In this document: one piece after another, positions 1 through 16,168 of the stretch
Position numbering within the stretch: the first letter of the stretch is position 1
Layout of the letters: every line of letters starts with the position of its first letter
NCBI RefSeq assembly: GCF_001424485.1
Contig: NZ_LMQC01000024.1
Span: forward strand, 62,001 to 126,000
DNA length: 64,000 nucleotides
Reading direction: 5' to 3'
From: Modestobacter sp. Leaf380
GTDB taxonomy: Bacteria > Actinomycetota > Actinomycetes > Mycobacteriales > Geodermatophilaceae
Translations under genes and position numbers: made by a program
The notes under the pieces: model-generated
The model's input: the letters and a program-made list of their open reading frames with translations, nothing else
The model's database searches: none
Told to the model about the DNA's origin: nothing

Positions 1-1
1 C

Positions 2-3000
2 ATTGACTTCGCCGTCACCCGCGACGAGCTCCGCGGGATCAACCCCGGCTTGGGGCACCGGGTCGACGGGGCGCTGGACGCGCTCGCGCCGGTCTTGGTC
101 GAACGCCCGGGCCACGGGGCAGTCCGCATCTACCACGAGTCGTTCGGCCGGTTCCTGCGCCAGCGACTGCAACGAGACTCCGCCGCGCTTGCCGCCGTGC
201 TCGGGTCAATCGCCGACTGGCTCCGGGCCCGCGGCATCTTCGAGGACAGCCGCGCGTTCCGGTCGCTTATCCCCGTGCTGGCCAAGGCTGGCCGTCATCG
301 GGAGGCTGCCGAGCTGGTCGACCACGACTTCGTTGTCAACGCCGTAGCGGCTGCGTTCCCGATGTCGGCGATCCGTGCGTGCCTGGCGACGGCCGCGAGC
401 AGCGCCGCCCAGGCCGGCGACTGGGCCGCGGCCGTCCGATGCGTCGAGCTCAGCCGGGCGGCCGCGACGCTGCAGGACGAACGATTCGAGTCGACCGTCG
501 TGGCGTTCGCGGACGTGGCCACGTCCCTGGTCGGTGCTGACGCCGTTTCGGACCGCCTGCTGCACGAGGGCCGGCCCGTCATGGCCGGGCGGGCCGGCCT
601 GCAGATGTGCGCGGCGGTGGACCGGCTCGGCGGAGTGCCGCCCTGGCATGAGTACATGGCCGCATACAGCGCCGAGGCCGACGACGACAGGACCAGCTAC
701 GGCGAGGAGTCCAACAGGGCGGTCGGGCTCGCGTGGCTTCGGGGCCGGCTCCGGCTGTCGGCGGCGTCGAGTGGCCCACCGCCCGCCACCGGGACCGGGA
801 CCGGGACCGGGACCGGGACCGGGACCGGGGACTCTCCGAGCCCGTCCTCGCCCGACAACGACTTCGGCGCGCCGATGAGGTGGGAGGAATTGGCGGACCA
901 CTACGACGAGGGGCGGCTGTCGGCCGCCGACCTCATCCGCCTCCTCGCCGACACCTACGGTGACGCAGCGGCCGACGCGTTCGCGCACCTGCCAGAGCGT
1001 GCCGGGCCGTACTGCCTGGCCATGGCCGAGGCAATCGCCGCGGATCGCGTGACCGGATCGTCTTGCACCGCCGTGGACTGGGCGTGGGCAGCAGTCGCGC
1101 ATCGCCTGCCGAACGGCTCGCTCCCACGGCTCTTCGCCGCCGGGCTGAACCTGGACGACGTCGCCGCCGTGTCGCCGTACGACCGGGGCGCGCTGCTGCA
1201 GTTGACCCGCGATGTCCAGCAGTCCTCCGTTCGGTGGGAGCGCTCTGTCCTGCCGAAGTGGCTAGACAAGATTGCGTCGGCGGCCCGCGCAGACCCGGTT
1301 GGTTTGGACGCCGCCGAGGCGCTCGTTGACGGCCCCGGCTGGTACCGGTGCTGGCTGCGCTTTTGCATCGCCCTGGCCCGCAGTGAGACCGTCTCCGCTG
1401 CTGACCGGGACGCCGCGGTGGAGGCCGCGCTTGAGCTGCTCACGGCTGACCTGCGCCCGTTCGTCGGGGCCCCGCGGGCGTGCGACCTGAACCCAATTCA
1501 TGGGACCCTGCAGGCCACCGTCCGCCGGGCCGTGTCGGCGATCGCCGACGACGACGCGTGGGAGCGGGCCGTTGGCGTTGTTCGGCGGGTCGGCGACGCC
1601 CTCGCCACGACGTTGTACGGCGAGGTCGGCGGGCCGCTGCCGTCCGACTGGCTGATGCTCCTCACGATCGAGACGGCGCCCGCGTCGAAGCTAACGGCGG
1701 TCCGCGCACTGGCCCGCGCCCAGATGGAGGAGTCCGGTGCGCGCTTCTACAGCGATATCGCTGAGACGCGGCTGTTCTCCGCACGGATCGAGCTCGCGGC
1801 CGGCGCGCGCGGAGAGGCAATCGCCCTGTGGACGCAGGCGTGCCAGCTGCTGGTCGCGTACGGGTGGCGCAAGGACAGGACGGTCTACGAGCTGCTAAAC
1901 CCGTTCGCGGCGCTCATCGACGCGGACCCCCGGCGCGCGCGGCAGAGGCTCCCGGCGGTGCAGGGAATCTGCGAGCGGGTCTGGCTGCATACCGACGGGA
2001 AGGGAACCCGCGGCGCCCCCAGCCGGTGGTGGGAGCTGCTGGCCGCCGCAGACCCCGTCGCCCTTGCTGGGCTCGTCGCGCCGGCCGTGCAAGCCCGCTG
2101 CAACGAGCCGGACGACCACCTGCACGACGCGCTCGCCGAGCTCTGGCGCGCGTGCAGCGGGACAGCGGATCCGTTCGTCGCTGCCGCCTTGCGCCTCGCG
2201 ATCAGCCTCCCGCTGGATCCGGCCGACCCCGATGCCGTCGCCCGGCTCGCCCAGATGTCGCCCGACCCGAAGAGCGGGCCGGGACGGCTGCTCGCGTCCT
2301 GCCTGGCCAGGTCCGACGAACGGCCGCCGCGGTACTCCTTCACCAACAGTGAGGAGATCGTGGCGTCCGACGAGAGCGTCGTCGTAGCCATCGACGCCGC
2401 CGCCCGATCGGCGCCCGGCGCGCCAACCGTGCGGCCGCTGCCCGTGGTCGCCGGGCCGCCTGAGCGCGACAACCCGTACAGCCGGCCCGCTCCGGACGCT
2501 CCGGACGGCCTCGCCGACCGGCTCGGCTCGCTGGTCCTGCCCAACTTCCCGACGGGACCGATAGGCCTGGCCCGTGCTATCCGGGCCTGGCAGTCCCGGC
2601 CGTACTCCGACCAGTCGGACGCCTGGGCCCTTGACAGAGCAGCGAGCGTCCTCGGCTACCGCCTGCTGGAGATGGCCCAGGACGGACGCTGTGAGGAAGC
2701 GTCCGCCCACCTGGAGCAGATCGCCGACGGCATCGGCCTGGGACGCGAGAGCGACCTGCTCGCCGCGCTGGCCGACGGGTTCACCCAACGGGGCGAGACC
2801 ACGCTTGCTGCCGTGGCGGGTTCTCTGGCGTGGACACGCGCCCGCGGGCGCGGCGGTTGGCTTGCCTTCGGTGGAGAGACGCACCTGAACGCCCTGCGGA
2901 CAGCGACCGCCGCCGACGCCGGCACCGCACTGGCAGTCATCGGCGACGAGATCGCCCGCGCCATCCGTAGCGACCACAGCGGGACCTGGGGCATCGCCCA

Positions 3001-4711
3001 GGCAATGGTCCTGGCGTTCGTCACCGGGGCGGCGACCCCCGACCACGCGGACGATGTCGACACAGCGTTCGCGTGTTTCGACGCAGCCCTGGAAGTCATC
3101 GACGCGCGGACGCCGCGCGTCCACCCCGACGACGACCCGGACCTGCCGTACAACGCGCCGTCGCCCGATCACGGCGAGAAGGCCCCCGGCGACGTCGACG
3201 CCGCTCTGGCCGCCGCCGCGATCGCGGGACTGGCCCGGCCCGAGCGCGAGGCCAAGCGCAGGGCGCTCCTGGCGACCGAGCACCTGCTCGCCGAACGGCC
3301 CGCGGCCGCCGCAGACGGGATCAGGCATGCACTCGAGAATCTGTCCGATCCGGCGACGCTGACCTGGCTGCTCTCACTGCTCGTCCGGTCCGCAGGCCCA
3401 GGTTCGGACGCGCTGGCCACGAGCGGCGACGCCCTGGCGGCCCTGGCCGGTGGACCGCACCTGGTCGTGCGCGCCCTCGCCCGGTCCCTGACCTACCCCC
3501 CGGCCTCACTCGGCTCGCCCGAGCCAGCCGAGCCGGAGCTGGTCGGCGCCGCGTCGACCAGACTGTGGACGCCCGACTCGCACAACCAAAACGATCACAA
3601 CGACGACGGCACGGCGCAGGCGATCGTCGATGAAGTCGCCGGCCGGCGGCTGGCCGCCGCCGAGCCGCTCCTGCCCGGGCTTTCGGCCGCCGTCGTCCGG
3701 CTAACGGCCAGCGCGATCGACGACGGGAAACTAACGCAGAGGATGCGCCGCCAGCTCAAGGCGCTCGAGGACCGGCACGGCGACGAGCGCCGATGGCCCG
3801 ATGCCTGGCTGGCGATCTCGGAGGCCGCTGAGGATGCGCTCCAGCGCGCCGCAGCCGGCGCCAGGTCGGCCGACCTACGCTGCGGCGCCCTGCAGGACCC
3901 TGGCGCGCGCGAAGCCGAACTCGCCGACTTCCTCTTAGACCCCCCGCGGCTGGCCCTGGCGCTCGAGGCGACACGCCTTCCCCGGCCGGCCGTTCCGCCT
4001 CCGCCGAGCCGCTACGACCGGCTCTGGAACACGCTCTCCCCAGCCCCTGCAGCAACGGCGGGCGCGGACGGACCCGAGCGACTTGCCGGTGCGGCGTCCG
4101 GGACCGTCGCCGCGCCGGTCATAACGGACTTTGGCGGGCTCGACGACGCTGGCGGTGGCTGGCGCGTCTTGGCCAGCGCCGAGGCGCTCCGCTCGTCTAC
4201 GCCCCGCGGTGACAACCAGGGCGACGTGCTCGTCTTCCGGTTCCGGGGCCCAGAGGCCCGCGACGAGCACGAACAGACCGGCTCGGACCTGCCGCCGTTC
4301 GTCCGCGGCGATCTGGACCATTGGGAAGGGCTGCTATCGGTGCCCTTCCGGTTCAGCGACGTCGAACCGCTCGCAGGGCTTGACATGAGCGTCGGCGCAG
4401 CCACCGACGCTCGTGGCGGGCTTGGGCTCCCAAAGATGGCAGTTGTACCTGGGCCCGCACTGCTCGCCGCGTTCCGGGCGACCTCGACCGACAGGCCGTT
4501 CGAGCTGTACGACGGCGCAGGGCCGCTTGCCGCGCTGCGCACCTGGAGGACTCTCTACGAGACCAGCGATTACCACCAGCCGTGGCCGCGGCTGACCGGC
4601 GCCGCACTAGTCGTAACCAGGCGCGGATTCGACCTGCTCACGGCCGTCGCTCCACGGACGGTCATGCGCGACTACGTCAGCCGCGCTGCCTCCATCGACG
4701 GCGGCGGTTGA
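2..4711 (+). CDS. C-terminal part of a giant STAND/NACHT-like protein with helical-repeat body (5' end outside window)
   Basis: The frame is open from base 2 with no stop, so the gene begins before the window; 1,569 residues are visible. Near the start lies a stretch reading AVRIYHESFGRFLRQRL, which resembles the H-x-SF-x-x-FL signature found where the winged-helix part of NACHT/NB-ARC (STAND) ATPases ends; the P-loop domain would then lie upstream, unseen. The next ~1,300 residues are alanine-rich alpha-helical segments of TPR/HEAT character, interrupted near residue 260 by a Thr-Gly repeat linker. The last ~170 residues (about 1,400 on) look like a separate mixed alpha/beta domain. Family knowledge: STAND proteins with long helical repeats act as sensors, often in anti-phage defence. 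That role here is inference from shape and from its place in an integrase-bearing island. No homologue is recognised with certainty. Confidence 0.75.
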   Translation: MDFAVTRDELRGINPGLGHRVDGALDALAPVLVERPGHGAVRIYHESFGRFLRQRLQRDSAALAAVLGSIADWLRARGIFEDSRAFRSLIPVLAKAGRHREAAELVDHDFVVNAVAAAFPMSAIRACLATAASSAAQAGDWAAAVRCVELSRAAATLQDERFESTVVAFADVATSLVGADAVSDRLLHEGRPVMAGRAGLQMCAAVDRLGGVPPWHEYMAAYSAEADDDRTSYGEESNRAVGLAWLRGRLRLSAASSGPPPATGTGTGTGTGTGTGDSPSPSSPDNDFGAPMRWEELADHYDEGRLSAADLIRLLADTYGDAAADAFAHLPERAGPYCLAMAEAIAADRVTGSSCTAVDWAWAAVAHRLPNGSLPRLFAAGLNLDDVAAVSPYDRGALLQLTRDVQQSSVRWERSVLPKWLDKIASAARADPVGLDAAEALVDGPGWYRCWLRFCIALARSETVSAADRDAAVEAALELLTADLRPFVGAPRACDLNPIHGTLQATVRRAVSAIADDDAWERAVGVVRRVGDALATTLYGEVGGPLPSDWLMLLTIETAPASKLTAVRALARAQMEESGARFYSDIAETRLFSARIELAAGARGEAIALWTQACQLLVAYGWRKDRTVYELLNPFAALIDADPRRARQRLPAVQGICERVWLHTDGKGTRGAPSRWWELLAAADPVALAGLVAPAVQARCNEPDDHLHDALAELWRACSGTADPFVAAALRLAISLPLDPADPDAVARLAQMSPDPKSGPGRLLASCLARSDERPPRYSFTNSEEIVASDESVVVAIDAAARSAPGAPTVRPLPVVAGPPERDNPYSRPAPDAPDGLADRLGSLVLPNFPTGPIGLARAIRAWQSRPYSDQSDAWALDRAASVLGYRLLEMAQDGRCEEASAHLEQIADGIGLGRESDLLAALADGFTQRGETTLAAVAGSLAWTRARGRGGWLAFGGETHLNALRTATAADAGTALAVIGDEIARAIRSDHSGTWGIAQAMVLAFVTGAATPDHADDVDTAFACFDAALEVIDARTPRVHPDDDPDLPYNAPSPDHGEKAPGDVDAALAAAAIAGLARPEREAKRRALLATEHLLAERPAAAADGIRHALENLSDPATLTWLLSLLVRSAGPGSDALATSGDALAALAGGPHLVVRALARSLTYPPASLGSPEPAEPELVGAASTRLWTPDSHNQNDHNDDGTAQAIVDEVAGRRLAAAEPLLPGLSAAVVRLTASAIDDGKLTQRMRRQLKALEDRHGDERRWPDAWLAISEAAEDALQRAAAGARSADLRCGALQDPGAREAELADFLLDPPRLALALEATRLPRPAVPPPPSRYDRLWNTLSPAPAATAGADGPERLAGAASGTVAAPVITDFGGLDDAGGGWRVLASAEALRSSTPRGDNQGDVLVFRFRGPEARDEHEQTGSDLPPFVRGDLDHWEGLLSVPFRFSDVEPLAGLDMSVGAATDARGGLGLPKMAVVPGPALLAAFRATSTDRPFELYDGAGPLAALRTWRTLYETSDYHQPWPRLTGAALVVTRRGFDLLTAVAPRTVMRDYVSRAASIDGGG
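791..826. repeat. Hexanucleotide tandem repeat GGGACC x6 inside the giant STAND-like gene
   Basis: Six perfect head-to-tail copies of GGGACC, with partial copies at both edges. In frame it encodes a Thr-Gly dipeptide run followed by a Ser/Pro/Asp-rich linker. A 6-bp unit cannot shift the frame, so copy-number change would alter linker length only. Confidence 0.9.
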
Positions 4712-4964
4712 CGGCGCGCCGGCCGGCGTGAGTGCGCCTAAGCCGTGGGCGGACCGAGGGGAGGCGGTCATCGGCGCTGCGGCAGAGACAGTCAGTGACG
4801 ATAGAAAGCGAGACCGCCGACGAGCAGCAAGGGAATTTCGATGGCCCGTCACTCATCGGCAGGTTGTCGTTGCTGCCGACGTAACCGACAAGACCGTCCC
4901 AGCGTCGCGCGCCACCCGCGACCAGACATAAGAATTCATGGCTGCACGCGCGAGGCCGATCATT

Positions 4965-6521
4965 CTACGGCGGGCTGATGTCATCCGTCGCCGCAGCAAT
5001 CAACCGTGCTCCGCCAGCCTGCGATGCTGCGGTCACGGCTCTTAGTGGCCCAGACCTCTGCGATTCCAGCATCACCACCTCACCGCCGGTCATGACCGGA
5101 TTCAGAAAGCGGAGCGTGCCGGAGTCAACCTCACACGACGCTATGTTAAGGCGTCCATCCAGCATCTCGAAGTTTTCGAAGTGGACGTCACTGCCGTCGA
5201 TGAGCACATGCCGTAGTGCGATCTCCCCGCCAGATACGCGCGCCCCGTCGAACGAAAATTCGGTCCCCTCTAGTCTTACTGGCCACTGAGACCACTCTGC
5301 CGCCCCAAAAATGAAGCTGCCCGCAGTCATATCGATGCCATTGCACCAGATGCTTCCCGCTTTGTGCTCGCCGCCGAGAATCCGAACGTCCGTCCCAGAG
5401 ATTTTTGCCCTGCTAAATGCAATGGAGGCACCATCGTGAAGCATTGATGGATTCAACTCCAGCACGCCACCCGAGAAGTCAGCCTCGACAAAGCTGACGC
5501 TGCCGCCGTGCTTGCGCGGACCCAAGATTCGAAGCGTGCCGCTTGTTAGGGAAGCGCCTTGGAAGTTAGCGTCTGTTTTTTCCGTAAAGTCGCCGTAGAA
5601 AGTTATGTCCGATTCTTCGAACTTTGAGTACTCGAACCCAAGTCGCCCCGCGAAGACGGCATTCAGGAAGGACACGTCGCTGCGACGGAACGTGGTCTGC
5701 GAGAAACCGCATTCCCCTACAAAGAGGCAATCGTCAAAGCGCACATGGCAGTCCGAAAAGATGATTCCATCGAAAGATGCATCCTCCAGAACCGAGCCGG
5801 TGAAGTCGAACTCGGCGCCTTGCCAGGAGCGGCCGTCTTCAGATACGAGATGATCCCGCAGCACCTGAATGACGGTGGTGCGAACCTGCGCCTCACCCGC
5901 CGCGTCGACGTTTGGGCCTGCGACAGGCTCGCCGCCAATGAACATCTCCCACGGTCGGGGCCGTCGGTACTCCGGTTGGTCGAAGGTTGGAAGCGGCCCA
6001 CGTGGCGCAAAAGGCATCCTGAGGTATGCACATAACACGTCAATGCAGGTTTGGCGCCCTTCGTGCCAGTCATCTGCAAGGCCAGCCATCGCATAGATTC
6101 CCGCTAGTCGGACTGCAGCTCTCTCCGAACCGATCTGGTCGGACGCACGCGCAAACCGCTCGTTGAACAGTCGGTTAGCGTCGCGTTGAGATGATTCCTC
6201 CTGCAAGCGGTGTTCTTCTTCGCCCAGCCGCTGCTTTCGGTAAGCGACGACCAGTGCAACGGCAGCACCGACTCCGGCCACCAGGCCCGCGGACACCTTT
6301 ATCGCATCGAGGGCGCCTCCTGGCGACACCGCATCGACCTGCTGAAAGTCAGGCCGACCGTAGACAAGCCAGATACCGACGGTCGCGAGCCCGACAAGAG
6401 TCAGGCCTCCAAGAACGACGATCGAAACGCTCATTGCTAACCCATGCCGAAAGAGTGTGGCCCGCTGCTCAGACGACTTCACGTCCCGGTCCAATGTCGC
6501 ACCCCCCTTTTCATCGCGCAC
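4965..6521 (-). CDS. Two-TM membrane protein with pentapeptide-like beta-helix domain
   Basis: 518 aa from a GTG start. Two hydrophobic segments (about residues 29-51 and 72-92) are followed by a charged helix and the stretch ERFARASDQIGSERAAVRLA (near 120-140), which in actinobacterial membrane-anchored pentapeptide-repeat proteins precedes the repeat domain. From about residue 240 to 490 the sequence is a regular series of short beta strands with aromatic/aliphatic residues spaced about every 20 positions (F-D-F-T-G, A-S-F-D-G, V-S-F-L-N and so on), consistent with a right-handed beta-helix; classic A(D/N)LXX pentapeptides are degenerate. Biochemical role unknown. It lies tail to tail with the STAND-like gene and codirectional with, downstream of, the nuclease-like gene. 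Base composition is lower in GC than the chromosomal genes to the right, consistent with transfer. Confidence 0.75.
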   Translation of the reverse strand: MRDEKGGATLDRDVKSSEQRATLFRHGLAMSVSIVVLGGLTLVGLATVGIWLVYGRPDFQQVDAVSPGGALDAIKVSAGLVAGVGAAVALVVAYRKQRLGEEEHRLQEESSQRDANRLFNERFARASDQIGSERAAVRLAGIYAMAGLADDWHEGRQTCIDVLCAYLRMPFAPRGPLPTFDQPEYRRPRPWEMFIGGEPVAGPNVDAAGEAQVRTTVIQVLRDHLVSEDGRSWQGAEFDFTGSVLEDASFDGIIFSDCHVRFDDCLFVGECGFSQTTFRRSDVSFLNAVFAGRLGFEYSKFEESDITFYGDFTEKTDANFQGASLTSGTLRILGPRKHGGSVSFVEADFSGGVLELNPSMLHDGASIAFSRAKISGTDVRILGGEHKAGSIWCNGIDMTAGSFIFGAAEWSQWPVRLEGTEFSFDGARVSGGEIALRHVLIDGSDVHFENFEMLDGRLNIASCEVDSGTLRFLNPVMTGGEVVMLESQRSGPLRAVTAASQAGGARLIAAATDDISPP

Positions 6522-6678
6522 CTTCGGTACCGGCCGGCCGCGGGCCGACCATTTCGGACACAGGCACCTCGTGGCGGCTCGATATATCTGCGGTCAATCT
6601 TCCTTATCCAGTCGACGATAGCTGGGCGGTCCGACGGACCTTCCTGAGCGCGCGGGTGCCGTCCTCAGGGCACTGGCT

Positions 6679-6700
6679 CGGGCCCCCCAAGCGGGGCCCG
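6679..6700. terminator. GC-rich hairpin downstream of the nuclease-like gene
   Basis: CGGGCCCC / GGGGCCCG, 8-bp perfect stem with a 6-nt loop, about 70 bp past the stop of the 828-aa gene and before the pentapeptide-like gene. There is no clear T-run, so it may be an attenuator or weak terminator between the two genes. Confidence 0.4.
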
Positions 6701-6767
6701 CTACCGTCGTGATTATTTCCTCTCAACCCCACATAGCCAAGATCCGACACGGCTGGTCGGCGTCCGG

Positions 6768-9254
6768 TCACCGCCTACTATTGCCCCGCTTCGCTCTTCC
6801 CGGTCTCGGCACCTTTGCGCCCATGGCATCAATCGGAATCAGTTGGGTCGCGTCTCGGGCTAGATTTTCGTCTGGGATCACGAGGCGGTTGTCGAATAGC
6901 AGCTCTAGTAGTTGCGCGTTACGCGAGTCGAAGAGCATCAGAGCTGCCCGGTGTGCGCGCATTTGATACTTCTTGGCCGACAGGTATCGCTGAAGGTATT
7001 GATGCGCCTCGTCGACCGACTCACCTTTCCCAGGGCAGGCCCAGGCAAGAACGAACGGATTACCAGCGGTATCTGTGACAACGTTCGTGACCGAGTGGTG
7101 ACGACCGTCTTGTTTGACTGCACGGCTCAGGTCTCGCGCGTATCGTCCGAATTTACGCTGGACCTTATCGCTTCCCTCTAATAGGATGGCCGTCGTGGAG
7201 AGCCAACCATTCGGCTTCTCTTCTGAGATGTTGTCGATCAACTTAAGTAGAGCGGCATCAACCGGCAGTCGCGGCTTCTCAGCGCTAGCGTTCGAGGGCT
7301 CTCGCTGAGCCTCATACCAGGCGTCCAGAGGGGCGGTCTGGCTTGCGATCAGTTCGCGACCTTGTGCTGCATGGCGCCGAAGCGACGCGACGGTGGGTGA
7401 CCCCGTCCACGGAAGTGCCTCCGCGCGCGCTTTCGGGTCAGGCTCGACGTATAGGCCGCGACGTAGGAATTGCAAGTACAGGTCGAGTTCATCGACGGCA
7501 AGGAACTTCTTCGTAACATCAGGGTGCGTGCGCCGACGTAAATAGAGGAGTAATTCACATGGACGTTCCACGAGCTCGCTAACAATTCGGAGGTCGTGCA
7601 GCGAGACGGTCCACGGTATGTTCTCCGGCTTGAGCACGCCAGCATCGACGAGCATCGCTGTGGCCGTCGTGACGCCTGACAAGTCCTCGAGACCAACAGC
7701 GATCGTATGAATTTCGCGAATGCCACCGACTTCTATCCACTTGTCATCATCAAGTCTGATACGTTTGTCTTCCACGATCCTTTCGCGTAGCCGTTCGGCC
7801 TGATTGGCCGCCGACGTCACGATGTCGCGCAACTTGCCTTGCAGGCGTCGCGCAACACCTCCCCGCGCCTCAGCGGTGAGCGACACGGCCTTGACCTCGA
7901 TGATCAGCGCAACGTCATCGACGATAATCAGCCCATCCGCTTCCACCCGCTTCGTGAACTGCGCAGGAGTATCTTGCTTGCCTGCCGCCTTTGGATCTGG
8001 GACGAAGTAGTTAAAGGATCGATGGACTGCAGCGCCCGGCAAAGCTGCCGCGATAAGATCAAGAGCTGCGTCCTCCACCCACCGACCACGGTGTCGGTCA
8101 TAGGCAGAGGTCTTGCCAGCCGCCTTGAGTTTCGTCTCGATGACTTCACGAACCGCCGGCAGGGCTAACGCATCATGAACCAACATTCGCCGACCATCCT
8201 GATCACGCACGAGCGGCGCTGTGCGCAGGGGGTTGTCGCCGTGAAAGAAACGTTCCATGGCTTCGTCCACATCGGTAATGCCCTGAAGTGTGAACGCGTC
8301 GAGGACGGCCTCGACGACTTCTTCCGTGTAGCCAGTCTTGCCCGCGACGGCTTGGATGTCGATCGCCGCAGAATGATCGACGTACGTCGTGAGGTCTTCT
8401 AGTGCAGCGAATAGCTCTTCGGCAACTGCTCGGTGTTCGTCTTCTAGCTGGGGCTCGAATTGCGCGCCAGCCCCATCGACGGCGCGCCTCACGCGGTTGA
8501 TCGACTTGAGCATAGGAAGACTGGCGTCACGAGCGGCTTCCATGCGGGAAAAGCGTTCTTCAAGCGCCTCGATGGACAGCACTCTCACCGCTTCCATGAC
8601 ATCAACAGCTTCGAGACCCGAGAATCCAAGAGTGCCTCGGCAATCGCGGTCTACATTCGAATCCGAGAAAAGGCCTCGTAGCGTTTCTCTCAGCATGTGG
8701 GGATACACAGGGTTACGAAGCATGATTTCGCGTTGAACAGACGCGACGAGCACTTGGCTTATGGCGTCTGAAGGCGGGGTCTCAAATAGAGGAAGCATCG
8801 CCCCAGCTTCAACAGCGGCCTGAGCCGAGGCCTGGATACTTAGGGGGAAGAACTCGGGATCCTGTTCTGCCGGTTGAGCGCTTTCCTGATTGACGTCGCG
8901 GCAAGTCAACGCGATGGCAATGACCTCAAGCACTGCGGGCAATGGCTCCGGGCCACCCGTGGCGTGCTGCATCGCCATCGTGGCTCGAACACTTTGGACA
9001 ACGCGCAAAATCCCCTGATTTCGGGCCGCTGAAAGCGTCTCACGAACCGCGCGACCGAGGTCTGCACGCGCCGCTGCGGCCGCTTCCTCGAAGCTGTTCG
9101 CGGCCTGGACGTATCCGGCGAGCCGCTCGTACGCGGACTCGATCGAGGAAACGGTCCGAGGGAATTGACGCGCGCCCGCGCGAACCTGTTGGGCGGCCTT
9201 TCGTGCCCGCCGCCTTCTCTCGCGACGCGCGCGCCGCTGACGTCCGGTACTCAT
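6768..9254 (-). CDS. 828-aa PD-(D/E)XK-type nuclease candidate
   Basis: Very basic N-terminus (first 30 residues mostly Arg/Lys/Ala), then a long helical region to about residue 380. The segment from about 386 (RHRGRWVEDAALDLI) to 500 has the layout of a restriction-endonuclease-like fold: RG..VE helix with a Glu, a beta hairpin, then D440 and E453-V-K455 (D-x12-ExK) at the end of hydrophobic strands, followed by an A-N-Q-A helix (Q about 485). That pattern is what NERD and other PD-(D/E)XK nuclease families show. The last 300 residues are unassigned. The nuclease call rests on motifs only. Position in a tRNA-integrated island next to a STAND-like protein and a membrane beta-helix protein suggests defence. 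GC content is lower than in flanking chromosomal genes. Confidence 0.7.
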   Translation of the reverse strand: MSTGRQRRARRERRRRARKAAQQVRAGARQFPRTVSSIESAYERLAGYVQAANSFEEAAAAARADLGRAVRETLSAARNQGILRVVQSVRATMAMQHATGGPEPLPAVLEVIAIALTCRDVNQESAQPAEQDPEFFPLSIQASAQAAVEAGAMLPLFETPPSDAISQVLVASVQREIMLRNPVYPHMLRETLRGLFSDSNVDRDCRGTLGFSGLEAVDVMEAVRVLSIEALEERFSRMEAARDASLPMLKSINRVRRAVDGAGAQFEPQLEDEHRAVAEELFAALEDLTTYVDHSAAIDIQAVAGKTGYTEEVVEAVLDAFTLQGITDVDEAMERFFHGDNPLRTAPLVRDQDGRRMLVHDALALPAVREVIETKLKAAGKTSAYDRHRGRWVEDAALDLIAAALPGAAVHRSFNYFVPDPKAAGKQDTPAQFTKRVEADGLIIVDDVALIIEVKAVSLTAEARGGVARRLQGKLRDIVTSAANQAERLRERIVEDKRIRLDDDKWIEVGGIREIHTIAVGLEDLSGVTTATAMLVDAGVLKPENIPWTVSLHDLRIVSELVERPCELLLYLRRRTHPDVTKKFLAVDELDLYLQFLRRGLYVEPDPKARAEALPWTGSPTVASLRRHAAQGRELIASQTAPLDAWYEAQREPSNASAEKPRLPVDAALLKLIDNISEEKPNGWLSTTAILLEGSDKVQRKFGRYARDLSRAVKQDGRHHSVTNVVTDTAGNPFVLAWACPGKGESVDEAHQYLQRYLSAKKYQMRAHRAALMLFDSRNAQLLELLFDNRLVIPDENLARDATQLIPIDAMGAKVPRPGRAKRGNSRR

Positions 9255-10483: not shown

Positions 10484-11071
10484 ATGTCCACCCCCTACGC
10501 CCGCCGCCAGCAGGAACGCCGCCGCGAGCGCGAACGCCAGCGCCGGGTCGCCGACGAGCGACCGCGTCCCGCCGACCCGTCCACCCCGCCGCCGCGTGCG
10601 ACCGAGCCCGTCCCGGCCGAGCACCGTCGACGGGCAGCCACGACCTGCGGCTGGTGCCTGGGATCCATCACGCCGAAGGCGCGGGGGCCGGTGCCGAAGT
10701 GGTGCTCCGCGTCGTGTCGGCAACGGGCGTGGGAACAGAGGCGTGCCGCAGCTTCCGGTCTGAGTGCGGTCGAGGTGGTCGAGCGGGTGATCGAGGTGCC
10801 CACTCCCCCACCGCCGCGCCGAGTACCACGACACCAGGAGTGGCACGCCTGGCTCCGCGAGCTCACCCGTCAGCTCGACGATCACCTTGTGTACGGCCGC
10901 CACCTGACCGGCATCGCCAACGAGGTCCGGCTCGTCCAGCAAGCGCTCGACCATCGGGGGATGGGCAGCAGCATCCGGTGGACCGACGTCACCCCACCGG
11001 CGTTCATGGGTCCAGGTAGCAAACCCGACCCCACCCACCGACGTCACCCCCGGCGCGGTGACACCTGGTGA
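10484..11071 (+). CDS. Zinc-ribbon protein of the integrative element
   Basis: 195 aa. The N-terminal 50 residues are Arg-rich and likely disordered or nucleic-acid binding. Residues about 54-80 hold C-x2-C...C-x3-C (CGWC ... KWCSASCRQRAW), a small treble-clef/ribbon module common in actinobacterial mobile-element and regulatory proteins. A conserved helical part follows (AVEVVERVIEVP..., then REL..QLDDHL..). Its stop lies about 85 bp before the excisionase start, so it may be cotranscribed with xis and int. A DNA-binding accessory role is inference. A dead paralogue lies just upstream. Confidence 0.65.
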   Translation: MSTPYARRQQERRRERERQRRVADERPRPADPSTPPPRATEPVPAEHRRRAATTCGWCLGSITPKARGPVPKWCSASCRQRAWEQRRAAASGLSAVEVVERVIEVPTPPPPRRVPRHQEWHAWLRELTRQLDDHLVYGRHLTGIANEVRLVQQALDHRGMGSSIRWTDVTPPAFMGPGSKPDPTHRRHPRRGDTW

Positions 11072-11156
11072 ACGCGCAAGCAACCTGGTCTGGCCGACGG
11101 GCAACCGTCCCCCGGGGCGGACCGCACGGGTGCGCACCAGTGCCAGGAGGCAACCC

Positions 11157-11378
11157 GTGACCACCGCCAGGAACCGGACCGCCGACCGCCTGCACGACAT
11201 CGACAGCGCAGCCGAGTACCTCCGGTGCGGCCGGCGCCTGGTCTACCGCCTCGTCGCCGAGCGGAGGATCACCCACACGAAGGCCGGCCGCTCACTGCGC
11301 TTCTGGCAGTCCGACCTCGACGCCTACCTCGATGCGGGAACCGTCCACCCGATGGGTTCCACCTCCACCGCGGTCTGA
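11157..11378 (+). CDS. xis: Excisionase, MerR/HTH_17-type winged helix
   Basis: 73 aa when started at GTG 11,157, which has a strong AGGAGG 6 bp upstream; a longer frame begins at 11,058 but would overlap the previous gene and has no such site. DIDSAAEYLRCGRRLVYRLV...TKAGRSLRFWQSDLDAYL is the usual helix-turn-helix_17 layout of recombination directionality factors. It lies 11 bp before the integrase start, the standard xis-int order of actinobacterial integrative elements. Predicted to bind the attachment arms and favour excision. Confidence 0.85.
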   Translation: MTTARNRTADRLHDIDSAAEYLRCGRRLVYRLVAERRITHTKAGRSLRFWQSDLDAYLDAGTVHPMGSTSTAV

Positions 11379-11389
11379 CGGCCGCCGGC

Positions 11390-12550
11390 ATGGCGTCACG
11401 CGCCGGCTTCGGGGCCATCGACAAGATGGCGTCGGGCAAGTGGCGAGCCCGCTGCACCGGACCCGACGGGAAGCGCCGGTCCGCCACTTTCCCCAGCAAG
11501 TCCGACGCCCGGGTCTGGCTCGCGACCCAGCAGACCGACGCCGTCCGCCGCATGTGGCGGGCACCCGAGGGCGCTCGCCGCACGGTCGACCAGTTCGCCG
11601 GCGAGTACCTCCAGCGCCAGGATCTCCGCGACTCGACCCGGGTGCTCTACGCCAACCTGTGGCGGCTGCACCTCGCCGACCGGTGGACCGGCGTCGAGGT
11701 CGGCGACGTCACCCCGGCGATGGTGCGCACCTGGCACACCACCGCGGCCGCGACGACCGGGCCTGCCGTGCTCGCCCAGAGCTACCGCCTGCTGCGTGCC
11801 GTCCTGGGCGTCGCCGTCGCCGACGACGCCATCGCGGCCAACCCGTGCAAGTTGCGCGGGGCGTCCACGCCGAAGGCGGCCCGCCCGTCCCGGGCCCTCA
11901 CCGCCGCGGAGGCCACCGCCGTCGCCGACCACCTCGGCCAGTCATCCCGCACGGAGAGGTACAGCGCCCTGGTAATGGTCCTGACCTTCGGCGGGCTCCG
12001 CTTCGGCGAGGAGGCAGCTTTCCGCCGGTCCGACGTCCTCGAAGGCGGCAACCGGCTGCGGATCGAGCGGGCAGTCCGCTACTACGACGGTCGCTGGGTC
12101 GTCGGCGAACCCAAGACCGAGGCCGGGCACCGCACCGTCGCCCTCCCCACCAGCGTGCGCATCGCCCTGGTCCGGCACATGGACCGCTACGTGCCAGACA
12201 CCGCGGACGCCCTCGTGTTCGGCACCCGCAGCGGGACGTTCCTCAGCGCCGCCAACTTCGGGAAGACGTTCCGCCGGGCCGCGGACGCGGTCGGCCTCGG
12301 GCCTGTGCGGCCGCACGAGCTGCGGCACACCGGCGCCACGCTCGCCGCCGCAGCCGGGGCGAGCACCAAGGAGCTGATGCGCCGGCTCGGCCACGCCAGT
12401 CCCGACGCCGCGCTGATCTACCAGCACGCCAACGACGACCGCGACGCCGAGATCGCGCGCGCGCTCGAAGCGCGGATCACGCCCCCACAGCCGCCGCCCT
12501 CGATGGCACGACGGAGCAGGTCCGTGAACCGACCCGGACCAGGGCGTTAG
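11390..12550 (+). CDS. int: Tyrosine site-specific integrase
   Basis: 386 aa from ATG 11,390. Domains in order: N-terminal AP2-like arm-binding (KMASGKWRARCTGPDGK), SAM-like core-binding domain (about 70-150), catalytic domain (about 170-365). Catalytic residues are present: Arg in FGGLRFGE, Lys in GEPKTEAGHR, H-x-x-R in RPHELRHTG, His in RLGHASPD, and Tyr in ALIYQHA. The gene reads directly into the tRNA-Gly(CCC) 3' fragment 75 bp downstream, which marks that as its target. The set of catalytic residues is complete, so it may be functional. Confidence 0.93.
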   Translation: MASRAGFGAIDKMASGKWRARCTGPDGKRRSATFPSKSDARVWLATQQTDAVRRMWRAPEGARRTVDQFAGEYLQRQDLRDSTRVLYANLWRLHLADRWTGVEVGDVTPAMVRTWHTTAAATTGPAVLAQSYRLLRAVLGVAVADDAIAANPCKLRGASTPKAARPSRALTAAEATAVADHLGQSSRTERYSALVMVLTFGGLRFGEEAAFRRSDVLEGGNRLRIERAVRYYDGRWVVGEPKTEAGHRTVALPTSVRIALVRHMDRYVPDTADALVFGTRSGTFLSAANFGKTFRRAADAVGLGPVRPHELRHTGATLAAAAGASTKELMRRLGHASPDAALIYQHANDDRDAEIARALEARITPPQPPPSMARRSRSVNRPGPGR

Positions 12551-12625: not shown

Positions 12626-12667
12626 CTTCCCAAGCTGACAGTGCGAGTTCGATTCTCGTCACCCGCT
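12626..12667 (+). other. attR: Attachment site: 3' fragment of tRNA-Gly(CCC)
   Basis: From the anticodon loop (TTCCCAA, anticodon CCC) through the anticodon-stem 3' strand, variable loop, T-arm (GCGAG-TTCGATT-CTCGT) and the acceptor 3' strand CACCCGC plus discriminator T. The 5' half is absent: the preceding bases cannot form the matching 5' strands, so this is not an intact tRNA. Crossover in the anticodon loop is typical of tyrosine integrases. Left/right naming is arbitrary. Confidence 0.85.
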
Positions 12668-12678
12668 CTACAGCAGAC

Positions 12679-13087: not shown

Positions 13088-13531
13088 CTAACAGCCGCGC
13101 CAGTCGCTCTGTAGCGGAGCTGGGCGCTCCGTTGCCGGATTGGGATGCTCGGGAAAGTGCCGCCCGAAGTGCGAGTGCGCTCTGTCCTCGATGAACAGGT
13201 AGCCCCAGGTTGAGCCTCCGAGGGCGTAGCCCTCGCCCAGCGCAAGAGGGTGGTAGCCGAGAAGTGGGCCACCCGTCAACGCGATCGTCTTGACGTGCGC
13301 GTGGCCGAACTCCAGGACCGCCGCGCCATCGACGCTCTCCGCCGAGGGCGGGGCCGGCTCACACCAATCGAGAAGGCCGATGACGACGTGCACGCGCCCT
13401 TCAGGCCATACACAGAGCACCCGGCCGCACGCGTACCAACCGCCTCGTCGCAGCGGGATGGCCCAAAAGTCACCAGCCCGAAGGTGCGCTGTTGACTTGG
13501 GGATGAACGGATAACCGGGGTGCTTCGGCAC
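13088..13531 (-). CDS. Imm26-like immunity protein
   Basis: 147 aa, GTG start. The N-terminal block RAGDFWAIPLRRGGWYACGRVL matches the Imm26 pattern (G-D-x-F-A-I-P-L...G-x-x-A-x-G-x-V) found in immunity proteins of polymorphic toxin systems and in scattered orphan genes. No partner toxin is visible on either side, so it may be an orphan or a leftover of a toxin cassette. Neighbours are the tRNA-Gly attachment site and a dead integrase, consistent with traffic at this locus. The family call rests on this motif alone. Confidence 0.6.
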   Translation of the reverse strand: MPKHPGYPFIPKSTAHLRAGDFWAIPLRRGGWYACGRVLCVWPEGRVHVVIGLLDWCEPAPPSAESVDGAAVLEFGHAHVKTIALTGGPLLGYHPLALGEGYALGGSTWGYLFIEDRAHSHFGRHFPEHPNPATERPAPLQSDWRGC

Positions 13532-13616: not shown

Positions 13617-14230
13617 CTAGGTGCCGCACCCGTGAGCAGCCCGTTGAGGCCTGTCACGACCGCACGATCCCGCTCCGGAGTGGGTGTGCAGGTAGATGCG
13701 AGCGACCCGCGTGGACGAGGGGCCCATGCCCGTCATGACGTCCGACAGGTTCGCGCCACCGTGAGCGGTCAGGGTGTTGCCGGTGTGCCGCAGATCGTGG
13801 AAGTGCACGCTCGTCACCTGGTCGTGAGCCATCGCCGCCCGCTTGTGCTTCTGGAACCCGATCTGCCGGATGCGGACTCCAGTCGGCCCTTGAAGACGTG
13901 AGCGGCTTCGTCGACGGCGACGTAACGGCACAGGTGCTTCCGCAGGTCGGGCAGAACGGCCTCGAACAGCGCCACGGTGCGGCGGACGGCAGCGGACTTG
14001 GGCGGCCCGACGACGAACCTCCCGTGCGGCTCGCTGGCGGAGACCCGCACGTGCGCCAGCCCGGTATCGACCGCTCCCCGAGACAGCGCCGCCAGCTGGG
14101 TGGTAAGTGACCGCCGCTCGCGAGAACTCCACGGCGTTCACGATCAGCAGGGGCACGTCGCGAACCAGGTAGAAGACGCCGCGGCCCAATCTGGACTGCG
14201 CCGAACACGGGCCGGAACCAAAGTGGCGTG
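13617..14230 (-). pseudogene. Decayed tyrosine integrase
   Basis: Catalytic-domain pieces lie in different frames. One frame gives LAHVRVSASEPHGRFVVGPPKSAAVRRTVAL...HLCRYVAVDEAAHVFKG (the K-bearing hairpin region). After a shift near 13,870 another gives VHFHDLRHTGNTLTAHGGANLSDVMTGMGPSSTRVARIYLHT. After a further shift past the Tyr comes DRAVVTGLNGLL, the usual C-terminal helix. The conserved LGH/MGH His is Pro here (GMGPSS). At least two frameshifts plus a lost catalytic residue show it is dead. It is not a recent copy of the intact integrase. Confidence 0.75.
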
Positions 14231-14381
14231 AGCCATGGCCTGCGCTGACCCAGCGGCAATGCAAAGCAGACTCCCGGCACCAGCGGGTCTCACGCACGGA
14301 CCTCAGCCTCCGCTCAGAGCCCGACACGTACACCCAGGCCGCAGCCACCGGGCTGTCGTGCAACTGGTCACGATTGCCCCC

Positions 14382-15185
14382 ATGACCACGCCAGTGATCG
14401 ACCCACAGGACGTCCTACGCGGTGCGCAGCTCAAGCTGGTCCGCGCCCGAGTCCTCGTGTCCTCCTTGCTGGAGGAGATCGACCGGGTCCTCACCACCCC
14501 GACTCAGGGGTCCGCCACGCCGAACCCAGACGGCACCTTCTCCGCGTACTACCGGCCCGCCGCCGAGCCCACTCCCGTGATGAGCCTGGTGCTCGGGGAG
14601 TTCGCGCACAACGCGCGCAGCGCTCTGGACAACGTGGTGACCTCGCTCGTCGTCAGCAGCGGCGGAACCCCGAAGTCGAACCACAAGTTCCCGGTGTTCA
14701 AGACCGAGACCGCGTGGCGAGGCAAGGTCGCCACTCCCTGGCCCGGCGCCGGGCCACTGGCCGGGCTCTCACAGGAGGACTTCGACTTGATCGAGGCCGT
14801 CCAGCCGTTCCACGCCGACGAGCCCGACCGGCACCCGCTCGCGTTGCTGGCCCAGATCAACAATGCGGACAAGCACCAGATGCTGCACGCCGCGATGGCC
14901 TACACCGCGCAGGACGCCGATCAACGGGTGCTGGAAGTGGTCCCCCCACTGCCCGTTGAAATTGTCTGGACGCCCCCACGAGGGACTCTGCTCGCCGCCG
15001 GTGCCGAGGCGACCCGCTACCGGTTTACGGACTCATCACCCAGCAGCTTCGGGCTCAAGCTCAACTGGCCCTTGTCGCTGCTGTTCCGGGATCACCTGGG
15101 GCGCGACGTCTACTTCTTCGAGCTGAACGACATCTACGTCGCCGCAGCTCTGGCAGTTCGGCCGTGGCTCGACCCACCGCGATGA
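14382..15185 (+). CDS. Conserved hypothetical protein
   Basis: 267 aa from ATG 14,382; an upstream in-frame start at 14,235 would add residues of unlikely composition. Two conserved blocks, LGEFAHNARSALDNVV (about 68-83) and LALLAQINNADKHQML (about 148-163), mark a widespread uncharacterised bacterial family in which an LxNxRSALD helix is followed by an N-x-DKH motif. Mostly helical in the first half and beta-rich in the second. No function is known to me. It lies between the integrase remnant and the start of the core-like genome. There is no clear Shine-Dalgarno sequence, so translation may be leaderless. Confidence 0.7.
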   Translation: MTTPVIDPQDVLRGAQLKLVRARVLVSSLLEEIDRVLTTPTQGSATPNPDGTFSAYYRPAAEPTPVMSLVLGEFAHNARSALDNVVTSLVVSSGGTPKSNHKFPVFKTETAWRGKVATPWPGAGPLAGLSQEDFDLIEAVQPFHADEPDRHPLALLAQINNADKHQMLHAAMAYTAQDADQRVLEVVPPLPVEIVWTPPRGTLLAAGAEATRYRFTDSSPSSFGLKLNWPLSLLFRDHLGRDVYFFELNDIYVAAALAVRPWLDPPR

Positions 15186-15598: not shown

Positions 15599-16168
15599 GT
15601 GTCCCGTCCCGTCCTGCAGGTCATCGCCGCCAGCACCCGCCCCGGACGCAAGGGCATCGCCGTCGCCCGCTGGGTCGTGGCGCAGGCCGAGGCCCACGGC
15701 GGTTTCGACGTGGAGCTGGTCGACCTGGCCGACGCGGGCCTCCCGGTGCTGGACGAGCCGAACCACCCCCGGCTGCGGCAGTACACCCAGGACCACACCA
15801 AGGCCTGGTCGGCGACCATCGACCGCGCCGACGCGTTCGTCTTCGTCTTCCCCGAGTACAACCACTCGATGCCCGGCGGGCTGAAGAACGCGCTGGACTT
15901 CCTCTTCCACGAATGGGCCGACAAGGCCGCCGGCCTGGTCTCCTACGCCGGGGTCTCCGCCGGCACCCGGGCCGCCGCGGCCCTCAAGCCGGTGCTCGGC
16001 GCCCTGCGGATGGTCCCGGTGGTCGAAGCCGCCACCATCCCGTTCTTCACCCAGTTCATCGACGAGGACGGCGTCTTCACCGGCAACGCCGAGCTCGAGG
16101 CCGGCGCGACCGCGATGCTCGACGAGATCGCCCGGCTCACCCGCGGCCTGCAGACCGTGCGCCGCTGA
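15599..16168 (+). CDS. NAD(P)H-dependent FMN reductase
   Basis: 189 aa, GTG start. Flavodoxin-like fold of the FMN_red family: an N-terminal phosphate-binding loop (ASTRPGRKGIAVARWV, about 11-26) and the signature FPEYNHSMPGGLKNALDFL (about 82-100) that contacts FMN. Expected to use NADPH to reduce FMN, quinones or azo compounds in the cytoplasm. It is followed 14 bp later by the aminoglycoside acetyltransferase-like gene, so the two are probably cotranscribed. The strong hairpin upstream separates it from the island scar. Confidence 0.9.
   Translation: MSRPVLQVIAASTRPGRKGIAVARWVVAQAEAHGGFDVELVDLADAGLPVLDEPNHPRLRQYTQDHTKAWSATIDRADAFVFVFPEYNHSMPGGLKNALDFLFHEWADKAAGLVSYAGVSAGTRAAAALKPVLGALRMVPVVEAATIPFFTQFIDEDGVFTGNAELEAGATAMLDEIARLTRGLQTVRR

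What the first reader, a model, noticed from the sequence alone, without database searches (positions are those of the whole stretch)
1..9254. Three-gene cargo of a tRNA island: STAND-like giant, beta-helix membrane protein and nuclease candidate
A >1,569-aa STAND/NACHT-like helical protein, a two-TM beta-helix protein and an 828-aa PD-(D/E)XK candidate are the only substantial cargo seen beside the integrase. Sensor, membrane piece and nuclease together are what a defence system would need. I know of no described system with this exact set. The pairing could also be chance within a variable island.
Basis: partly seen in the sequence, partly recalled or inferred. Interest (0 to 1): 0.7.

Follow-up and report, generated by a model that had tools for sequence, protein, structure and literature searches.

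The report
New Avs-like immune sensor in a tRNA island
A soil-type actinobacterium carries, in a mobile island at a tRNA gene, a giant predicted virus-sensing DNA-cutting protein of a family not named in the catalogues searched, next to a separate nuclease gene and a common membrane protein that probably are not parts of the same machine.

Summary
The three genes are real. The tRNA-Gly, just outside the window, and a 43-bp copy of its 3' end (12626-12668) frame a 15-kb integrase island. The missing N-terminus of the giant protein (2135 aa in full) has Walker A and B and, before them, a Cap4-like nuclease; a confident model of this part in its closest relative matches phage sensor Avs3 best (E 7e-12). 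No catalogued Avs model covers it. Its C-terminal ~330 residues are fused here but a separate overlapping gene in other bacteria (found in 72 of 80 loci; three changes on a tree). So its constant partner is already inside the protein. The pentapeptide membrane protein (1 of 80 loci, weak) and the 828-aa PD-(D/E)XK protein (4 of 80, as next large gene upstream; giant protein in 0 of 16 nuclease loci) are not constant partners and differ in composition, though 4 of 80 exceeds chance. The nuclease lies near defence genes elsewhere (Avs3, Druantia, PifA, AbiU; chosen sample). Three congeners have a 90-91% identical integrase at this tRNA with other defence-type cargo. Verdict: an uncatalogued Avs-like sensor-nuclease plus a separate defence-type nuclease in a cargo-swapping island; not a three-gene system. 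Phage defence is inferred, not shown.

The parts
1..4711 (+). C-terminal 1,569 residues (567-2135) of the Avs-like STAND protein; the gene starts at C24:60304 (1,697 bases before window base 1). Nuclease motifs (GYEYQD 10-15, VDEK 35-38, DRFDD 43-47, QFKH 61-64), Walker A 310-318 and Walker B 403-412 lie upstream of the window.
3608..4708 (+). fused 'partner' domain (end of the STAND protein); a separate, overlapping downstream gene in many relatives
   Evidence: a profile built only from 11 separate partner genes matches residues 1765-2126 with 107.5 bits
4965..6521 (-). 518-aa pentapeptide-repeat protein with two hydrophobic segments; common actinobacterial family, not a constant partner
   Evidence: 1 of 80 STAND loci
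6768..9254 (-). 828-aa PD-(D/E)XK nuclease-like protein (E394, E438-x-D440, E453-x-K455); separate defence-type gene
10484..11071 (+). 195-aa island core gene, kept (58-64% identity) in three congener islands
11058..11378 (+). helix-turn-helix/excisionase-like gene (HTH_17)
   Evidence: (E 1.1e-9)
11390..12550 (+). tyrosine recombinase (integrase), 386 aa, 90-91% identical to integrases at the same tRNA in three congeners
12626..12668 (+). attR: 43-bp exact copy of the 3' end of tRNA-Gly(CCC) (attL at C24:59611-59653)

Best explanation
The giant protein is a self-contained antiphage sensor-effector of the Avs kind: N-terminal Cap4-like PD-(D/E)XK nuclease (residues ~1-260), STAND/NACHT NTPase (~280-560), a long, probably helical region, and a C-terminal ~330-residue domain that other bacteria encode as a separate overlapping gene. 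Most likely the C-terminal half, perhaps with the partner domain, recognises a phage protein; ATP binding then drives oligomerisation, the nuclease domains come together and cut DNA, and the infected cell dies or stops growing. The domain order and the nuclease/NTPase folds are supported here; ligand recognition, oligomerisation, DNA cleavage and defence are inferred from Avs3. The 828-aa nuclease and the pentapeptide membrane protein are separate cargo of the same integrase-borne island, which occupies a tRNA-Gly site where congeners carry other defence-type cargo.
For: Upstream sequence gives Walker A APPGHGKSW and Walker B VALVVDGLDH; Pfam AAA_16 1.2e-8 above its cut-off, NACHT 2.7e-5 just below. 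Core nuclease and Walker residues are invariant in 58 of 58 rows, taken from 58 of the 80 loci (G7 Y8 Q11 D12 D40 D43 D44 Q57 K59; P305 G306 G308 K309; D401 G402 D404 H405, L033 fragment numbering). Model of the closest relative (537 residues), pLDDT 95.1; best PDB match Avs3 8dgc_A, E 7.0e-12, 574 alignment columns; Apaf-1, CED-4 and plant NLRs are among the next. Partner domain in 72 of 80 loci, 41 in the STAND frame; a profile of separate partner genes alone finds it in 69 of 80 and in the window protein; three split/fusion changes forced by starred branches, one of them resting on a single row. Nearest neighbours of the STAND genes include GajB, LmuB, AbiEi and restriction genes (no control set). 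Island. Composition: STAND GC3 0.86, pentapeptide 0.65, nuclease 0.63.
Against: No experiment shows defence. No catalogued Avs model covers the protein: PADLOC Avs1b only residues 378-557 (E 2.3e-6), NCBIfam Avs1b 22 bits against a cut-off of 1500. The Avs3 match has TM 0.54 (by query length) and rmsd 8.0, so the domain arrangement differs, and the tool does not print which residues align. The middle region and the partner domain were not modelled; the partner has no supported Pfam or PDB match. Four adjacencies with the nuclease in 80 loci are more than chance, so a looser functional link is not excluded.
Confidence: 0.72

Rival explanations
1. The 828-aa PD-(D/E)XK protein is an add-on effector that works with Avs-type sensors, so that STAND plus nuclease (not the membrane protein) form a loose two-gene system.
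For: In 4 of 80 STAND loci a nuclease relative is the next large gene upstream, 0.07-1.4 kb away (in three of them small, doubtful ORFs lie between): L043 and L100 divergent, L078 and L097 codirectional; expected 0.01-0.03 by chance. In Rhodococcus (L016) it lies directly beside an Avs3a gene (PADLOC E 0; SeAvs3 E 7.6e-240); in L029 beside another STAND protein. Recurrent acquisition of nucleases by unrelated immune systems is published for another nuclease type (PMC12799240; passages seen).
Against: 76 of 80 STAND loci lack it within the fetched flanks (some flanks are short); 0 of 16 nuclease loci have the STAND protein. Of 11 STAND-bearing genomes searched that were not chosen for adjacency, 10 have no nuclease relative and 1 has it elsewhere. 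Other neighbours are unrelated: DruE, PifA, AbiU, helicases. L078 and L097 are distant relatives (E 1.7e-30, 7e-15). In the window it is on the other strand, with another gene between, and differs in GC3.
Confidence: 0.15
2. The three genes are one defence system as the first reader proposed (sensor, membrane piece, nuclease).
For: They are adjacent in one island; in Rhodococcus L016 an Avs3a gene, a nuclease relative and a pentapeptide-repeat protein also stand side by side.
Against: 0 of 80 STAND loci hold both others. The pentapeptide family is common by itself (138 plasmid records, 17 of them with 80% or more of the query, against 12 for the nuclease and 3 for the STAND protein). Orientation and order differ between the window and L016; composition breaks between STAND and the other two.
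Confidence: 0.05
3. The STAND protein is a regulator or kin-recognition factor (MalT-like or heterokaryon-incompatibility-like) rather than an antiphage protein.
For: STAND proteins also act in transcription (start of the abstract of PMC10427625) and in self-recognition (passages in PMC10907252).
Against: No DNA-binding regulator domain among the Pfam matches; N-terminal nuclease with invariant core residues; mobile-island setting and defence-gene neighbours.
Confidence: 0.08

Closest known systems
Avs3 (AVAST type III, SeAvs3, PDB 8dgc)
   Same: N-terminal nuclease, STAND NTPase, large C-terminal region, ~2000 aa; best structural match of the modelled nuclease-NTPase part.
   Different: No pairwise BLASTP match between the window protein and the Rhodococcus Avs3a relative at E 0.01; not matched by PADLOC Avs3 models; has a C-terminal domain that occurs as a separate gene elsewhere.
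Avs1 (Avs1b, STAND with protease)
   Same: The only catalogued Avs model with any match (NTPase part).
   Different: Match covers about 180 residues; our N-terminus is a predicted nuclease, and no MBL nuclease gene matched among the island proteins scanned (the Avs1a MBL nuclease is from passages in PMC12799240).
Cap4 / DUF4297 nucleases
   Same: Helix with Y-Q-D, then D and Q-x-K on strands; the likeness to Cap4 is recalled.
   Different: No Pfam match to a Cap4/DUF4297 model at E up to 5.
GapS1 family
   Same: Weak NCBIfam match of the 828-aa protein over its nuclease core (residues 340-499, E 0.071).
   Different: 12 bits against a cut-off of 320.
Septu and Hailong
   Same: Nuclease (Septu) and pentapeptide-like effector (HalA) were thinkable relatives.
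   Different: No Septu model matched any of the proteins scanned; HalA match E 0.42.

Membership tests
Avs (antiviral STAND) superfamily | STAND/NACHT P-loop NTPase with Walker A and B | tested here: met
Avs (antiviral STAND) superfamily | N-terminal effector domain (nuclease in Avs1-4) | tested here: met
   invariant D and QxK motif in 58 of 58 rows; model of a relative matches Avs3 best; activity not tested
Avs (antiviral STAND) superfamily | long C-terminal TPR-like sensor | tested here: inconclusive
   residues ~560-1780 have no Pfam repeat match; weak helical-repeat (PPR) matches at residues 638-674 (E 0.002); not modelled
Avs (antiviral STAND) superfamily | recognition of a phage protein and activated oligomer | not testable with these tools
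   needs experiment
named Avs types 1-5 | match to a curated Avs model over the protein | tested here: not met
   PADLOC: only Avs1b over ~180 of 2135 residues; NCBIfam Avs1b 22.1 bits, cut-off 1500; relative L033 likewise in PADLOC
PD-(D/E)XK nuclease (828-aa protein) | conserved E ... D ... (D/E)xK | tested here: met
PD-(D/E)XK nuclease (828-aa protein) | PD-(D/E)XK core fold | tested here: inconclusive
   model pLDDT 58.5 from 5 sequences; no PDB match at E <= 0.001; R.BspD6I small subunit, Cdn1/Can2, McrC and R2 protein among the weak top ones
integrase-borne tRNA island | tRNA att repeat, integrase, empty site in relatives | tested here: met
   empty in 2 of 8 congeners
Septu | PtuA ATPase plus PtuB HNH protein (recalled) | tested here: not met
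   no Septu model matches

The most novel reading that the evidence does not exclude
A new, widespread Avs type in which the C-terminal ~330-residue domain is a detachable subunit (a phage-protein receptor or nuclease licence) that has been split off or fused two or three times, so that a bacterial NLR works either as one chain or as a two-protein sensor-effector.
Probability: 0.3. Interest if true: 0.7.

Novelty: new variant of a known kind. Interest (0 to 1): 0.5.

Why it matters
If right, this adds a family of Avs-like bacterial NLRs (249 matching stretches in a scan of 84,980 species genomes, from Actinomycetota to Bacteroidota and Bacillota) that the catalogues used here do not name, with natural split and fused versions that make the role of the C-terminal domain directly testable. 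It also flags an uncatalogued PD-(D/E)XK protein that recurs near Avs3, Druantia and STAND genes, and a tRNA-Gly site whose islands share one integrase while exchanging defence-type cargo.

Tried and rejected
Three-gene unit: rejected. Phage origin: no relative of the nuclease in the viral contigs or phage records; two weak ones of the STAND protein in viral contigs. Sequence search of the PDB with the profiles found no convincing relative of the nuclease or the partner domain.

My own slips: the integrase was given out of frame (the lack of a match there is meaningless) and in the 'INT' rows; searches use the correct frame. Gene calls in unannotated loci come from a simple codon-position script and are approximate; the counts use six-frame profile searches. 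The first partner profile was built with the window's own C-terminus among its six sequences, so its match to the window proves nothing; the control (11 separate partner genes only) finds 69 of 80 loci, 39 of 41 fused ones, and the window.

Limits of the counts: the 80 loci are the best of 249 and not independent (L034/L035 come from one genome, L042/L045 from one organism, L037/L073 are near copies). The 31 'separate' cases include five (L040, L042, L044, L052, L084) that look like interrupted fused genes, and L099, whose partner frame stops early. Of the eight without partner, seven STAND frames end within 300 bases of a contig end and L107 (1946 aa) does not. In the tree (quick method, no bootstrap) L040, L044 and L046 were unlabelled; one of the three changes rests on L095, one row with a long branch from a low-coverage assembly, though its junction is a regular TTG/TGA overlap. 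Nuclease loci: 16 with a profile match were examined; L135 was fetched but has no profile match; weak hits in G256, G375, G562 and G653 were not opened; 5 of the 12 nuclease plasmid records were opened (H1, H3, H7, H8, H9). The neighbours are 8 large proteins from 7 loci that I chose; 5 of 8 match PADLOC at E 0.01, and no control set was scanned. The 119 neighbours come from at most 76 of the 80 loci (four were left out), at most one per side, up to several kb away, and include the four nuclease relatives; the tool gives no number of members with any match.

Papers: PMC12799240, PMC12931631 and PMC10907252, passages only; all others, search listings with abstract beginnings. That no described system matches rests and paper searches, not on a full survey; features of Avs1-Avs5, Cap4 and Septu beyond those passages are recalled.

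Full report
OBSERVATION. The window is C24:62001-126000 of a 4.76-Mb genome in 25 contigs. A genome reported as 'same family' (G158) is identical in the STAND N-terminus to a Blastococcus record (L099), so the host is probably of that family (Geodermatophilaceae; inference). The first runs on upstream; the first stop is at C24:59917. I take the GTG at C24:60304 as start because the gene of the closest relative (L033, 73% identical over 516 columns) begins at the equivalent codon. The full protein has 2135 residues; the window holds residues 567-2135.

THE MISSING N-TERMINUS. It contains Walker A (APPGHGKSW, 310-318) and Walker B (VALVVDGLDH, 403-412). Pfam gives AAA_16 at 1.2e-8 (above its cut-off) and NACHT at 2.7e-5 (just below). 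Residues 1-260 hold GYEYQD, VDEK, DRFDD and QFKH. In an alignment of 58 relatives (58 of the 80 loci) the core residues of these motifs and of both Walker motifs are invariant. Foldseek against the PDB puts SeAvs3 bound to a phage terminase first (8dgc_A, E 7.0e-12, 574 columns, TM 0.54 by query length, rmsd 8.0); Apaf-1, CED-4 and plant NLRs are among the following ones, with other AAA ATPases. The tool prints no residue range, but 574 columns for 537 residues must span most of both domains. So the N-terminus is a nuclease-STAND pair laid out as in Avs3, though arranged somewhat differently.

A FUSED PARTNER. In relatives from plasmids of Pseudoalteromonas and Moraxella and from two genomes of the order (L025, L026), the STAND gene is shorter (1578-1783 aa) and overlaps a downstream gene of 287-387 aa. 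The window protein and the Pseudanabaena relative carry that sequence at their C-terminus. A scan of 84,980 species genomes found 249 stretches that encode a relative; the best 80 were kept. A profile of the partner finds it in 72 of the 80: 41 in the same frame as the STAND protein, 31 in another frame, of which five look like interrupted fused genes; of the eight without it seven end near a contig end. Because that profile contained the window's own sequence, I repeated the search with a profile of 11 separate partner genes only: it finds residues 1765-2126 of the window protein (107.5 bits), 69 of the 80 loci and 39 of the 41 fused ones. On a tree of 64 rows the split state needs three changes, all forced by starred branches; one rests on a single row (L095). 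Repeated fusion and splitting is good evidence of a shared function. The partner has no supported Pfam or PDB match.

CO-OCCURRENCE. In the 80 STAND loci (1.54 Mb in all) the nuclease profile matches four: L043 (4e-283) and L100 (1.5e-262), divergent, L078 (1.7e-30) and L097 (7e-15), codirectional; in each it is the next large gene upstream, 0.07-1.4 kb away. All keep the catalytic residues. The pentapeptide protein matches one locus weakly (L074, 1.2e-7). Clustering all called genes shows no other neighbour shared by more than 11 loci; I take that 11-locus cluster to be integrases, but assigned no family to it (inference). With a nuclease prevalence of 7 of 200 genomes of the order, own included (6 of 246 of the phylum; 7 of 296 of the class), about 0.01 matches would be expected for genomes of 6 Mb, or 0.03 if prevalence were 10%; four is far more. 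The same single-protein search that gave the prevalence also finds all four; among the 11 other STAND-bearing genomes in that call, one has a nuclease relative elsewhere and ten have none. In the other direction, none of 16 loci with the nuclease holds the STAND protein, although some flanks are short (L131, L031). So the pair is enriched but not constant.

THE NUCLEASE. Its invariant E394, E438-x-D440, E453-x-K455 are the PD-(D/E)XK signature. The model is poor (pLDDT 58.5); no PDB match reaches E 0.001, but the weak top ones include several PD-(D/E)XK enzymes. Large neighbours that I chose from seven loci include an Avs3a (PADLOC E 0; SeAvs3 7.6e-240), DruE (about 3 kb away), a PifA-like KAP NTPase, AbiU, a STAND NTPase and helicases; 5 of these 8 proteins match PADLOC at E 0.01, and a Gordonia plasmid has annotated helicase, DUF1156 and DUF499 genes beside it. 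PADLOC, Pfam and PHROGs give no supported match to it, and NCBIfam only GapS1 at E 0.071. It was not found in the viral and phage collections. I read it as an uncatalogued defence-island gene; this is guilt by association without a control set.

THE PENTAPEPTIDE PROTEIN. Two hydrophobic segments and pentapeptide repeats. Relatives stand in 138 plasmid records (17 with at least 80% of the query), 109 of them Streptomyces or Rhodococcus, against 12 for the nuclease and 3 for the STAND protein: a common gene with no visible tie to either. In Rhodococcus opacus (L016) a pentapeptide protein stands beside the nuclease and Avs3a, matching ours in a 73-residue stretch at 37%.

THE ISLAND. tRNA-Gly(CCC) lies at C24:59582-59655; 43 bases of its 3' end recur exactly at window 12626-12668, behind a tyrosine recombinase whose PDB relatives are integrases. 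Eight genomes of the genus besides our own have the tRNA and its left flank. Two (G710, G078) are empty: the tRNA is followed within 99-151 bp by the FMN-reductase gene that in the window begins at 15599. G071 has about 1.2 kb between; G708 and G709 were not resolved. Three (G113, G064, G127) carry an integrase 90-91% identical to ours and the 195-aa core gene, but none of our three cargo genes in the fetched stretch; a second att copy was seen in G113 (1 mismatch) and G127 (5 mismatches), not in G064. Their cargo includes PDC-M68A/B in G064, a type II restriction-like enzyme with Vsr in G127, and RmrA-like and DUF4062 genes in G113. So the site is a hot spot for islands that share an integrase and exchange defence-type cargo. 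The composition break inside our cargo (STAND GC3 0.86; pentapeptide 0.65; nuclease 0.63) suggests that it was gathered in at least two steps.

MECHANISM. Shown: domain order, conserved core residues, predicted fold of nuclease plus NTPase in a close relative, fused/split partner, island. Inferred from Avs3: recognition of a phage protein by the C-terminal half, ATP-dependent oligomerisation, DNA cleavage and cell death. A passage of PMC12931631 states that the nuclease effectors of Avs1-4 cut phage and host DNA after recognising phage proteins such as terminase or portal.

MEMBERSHIP AND NOVELTY. It resembles an Avs protein in the features that could be tested (NTPase, N-terminal nuclease; the sensor region was inconclusive), but fails the test of matching a curated Avs type over its length. 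I therefore call it an uncatalogued Avs-like family, a new variant of a known kind. Paper searches listed no description of this architecture that I recognised; most subscription papers are not held, so this is weak evidence of novelty.

Noticed in passing
window 13617-14363 (-): Fragment with a weak phage-integrase match (21.5 bits, below the cut-off of 27.1), between attR and the FMN reductase: probably the remnant of another element at the same site.
   Followed up: partly
L147, L151, L152 (tRNA-Gly site of three congeners): Islands with a 90-91% identical integrase but different cargo: RmrA-like/DUF4062, PDC-M68A/B, type II restriction-like enzyme plus Vsr.
   Followed up: yes
L016 1297-11807 (Rhodococcus opacus plasmid): An Avs3a gene, a relative of the 828-aa nuclease and a pentapeptide-repeat protein side by side.
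   Followed up: partly
L015, L019 and other plasmid relatives of the 828-aa protein: Annotated 'preprotein translocase subunit SecA', apparently a misnomer; the distant relative in L097 ends in a SEC-C-like cysteine motif (motif name recalled).
   Followed up: no
L024 6340-10134 and L014 4190-7936: Large genes (1264 and 1248 aa) directly upstream of the STAND gene in two distant hosts; not compared with each other.
   Followed up: no
L040, L042, L044, L052, L068, L084: STAND relatives whose reading frame looks interrupted; sequencing errors or decayed genes.
   Followed up: no
window 14235-15185 (+) and 13088-13531 (-): ORFs in the inserted DNA without a family match (14235-15185; 13088-13531).
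   Followed up: no
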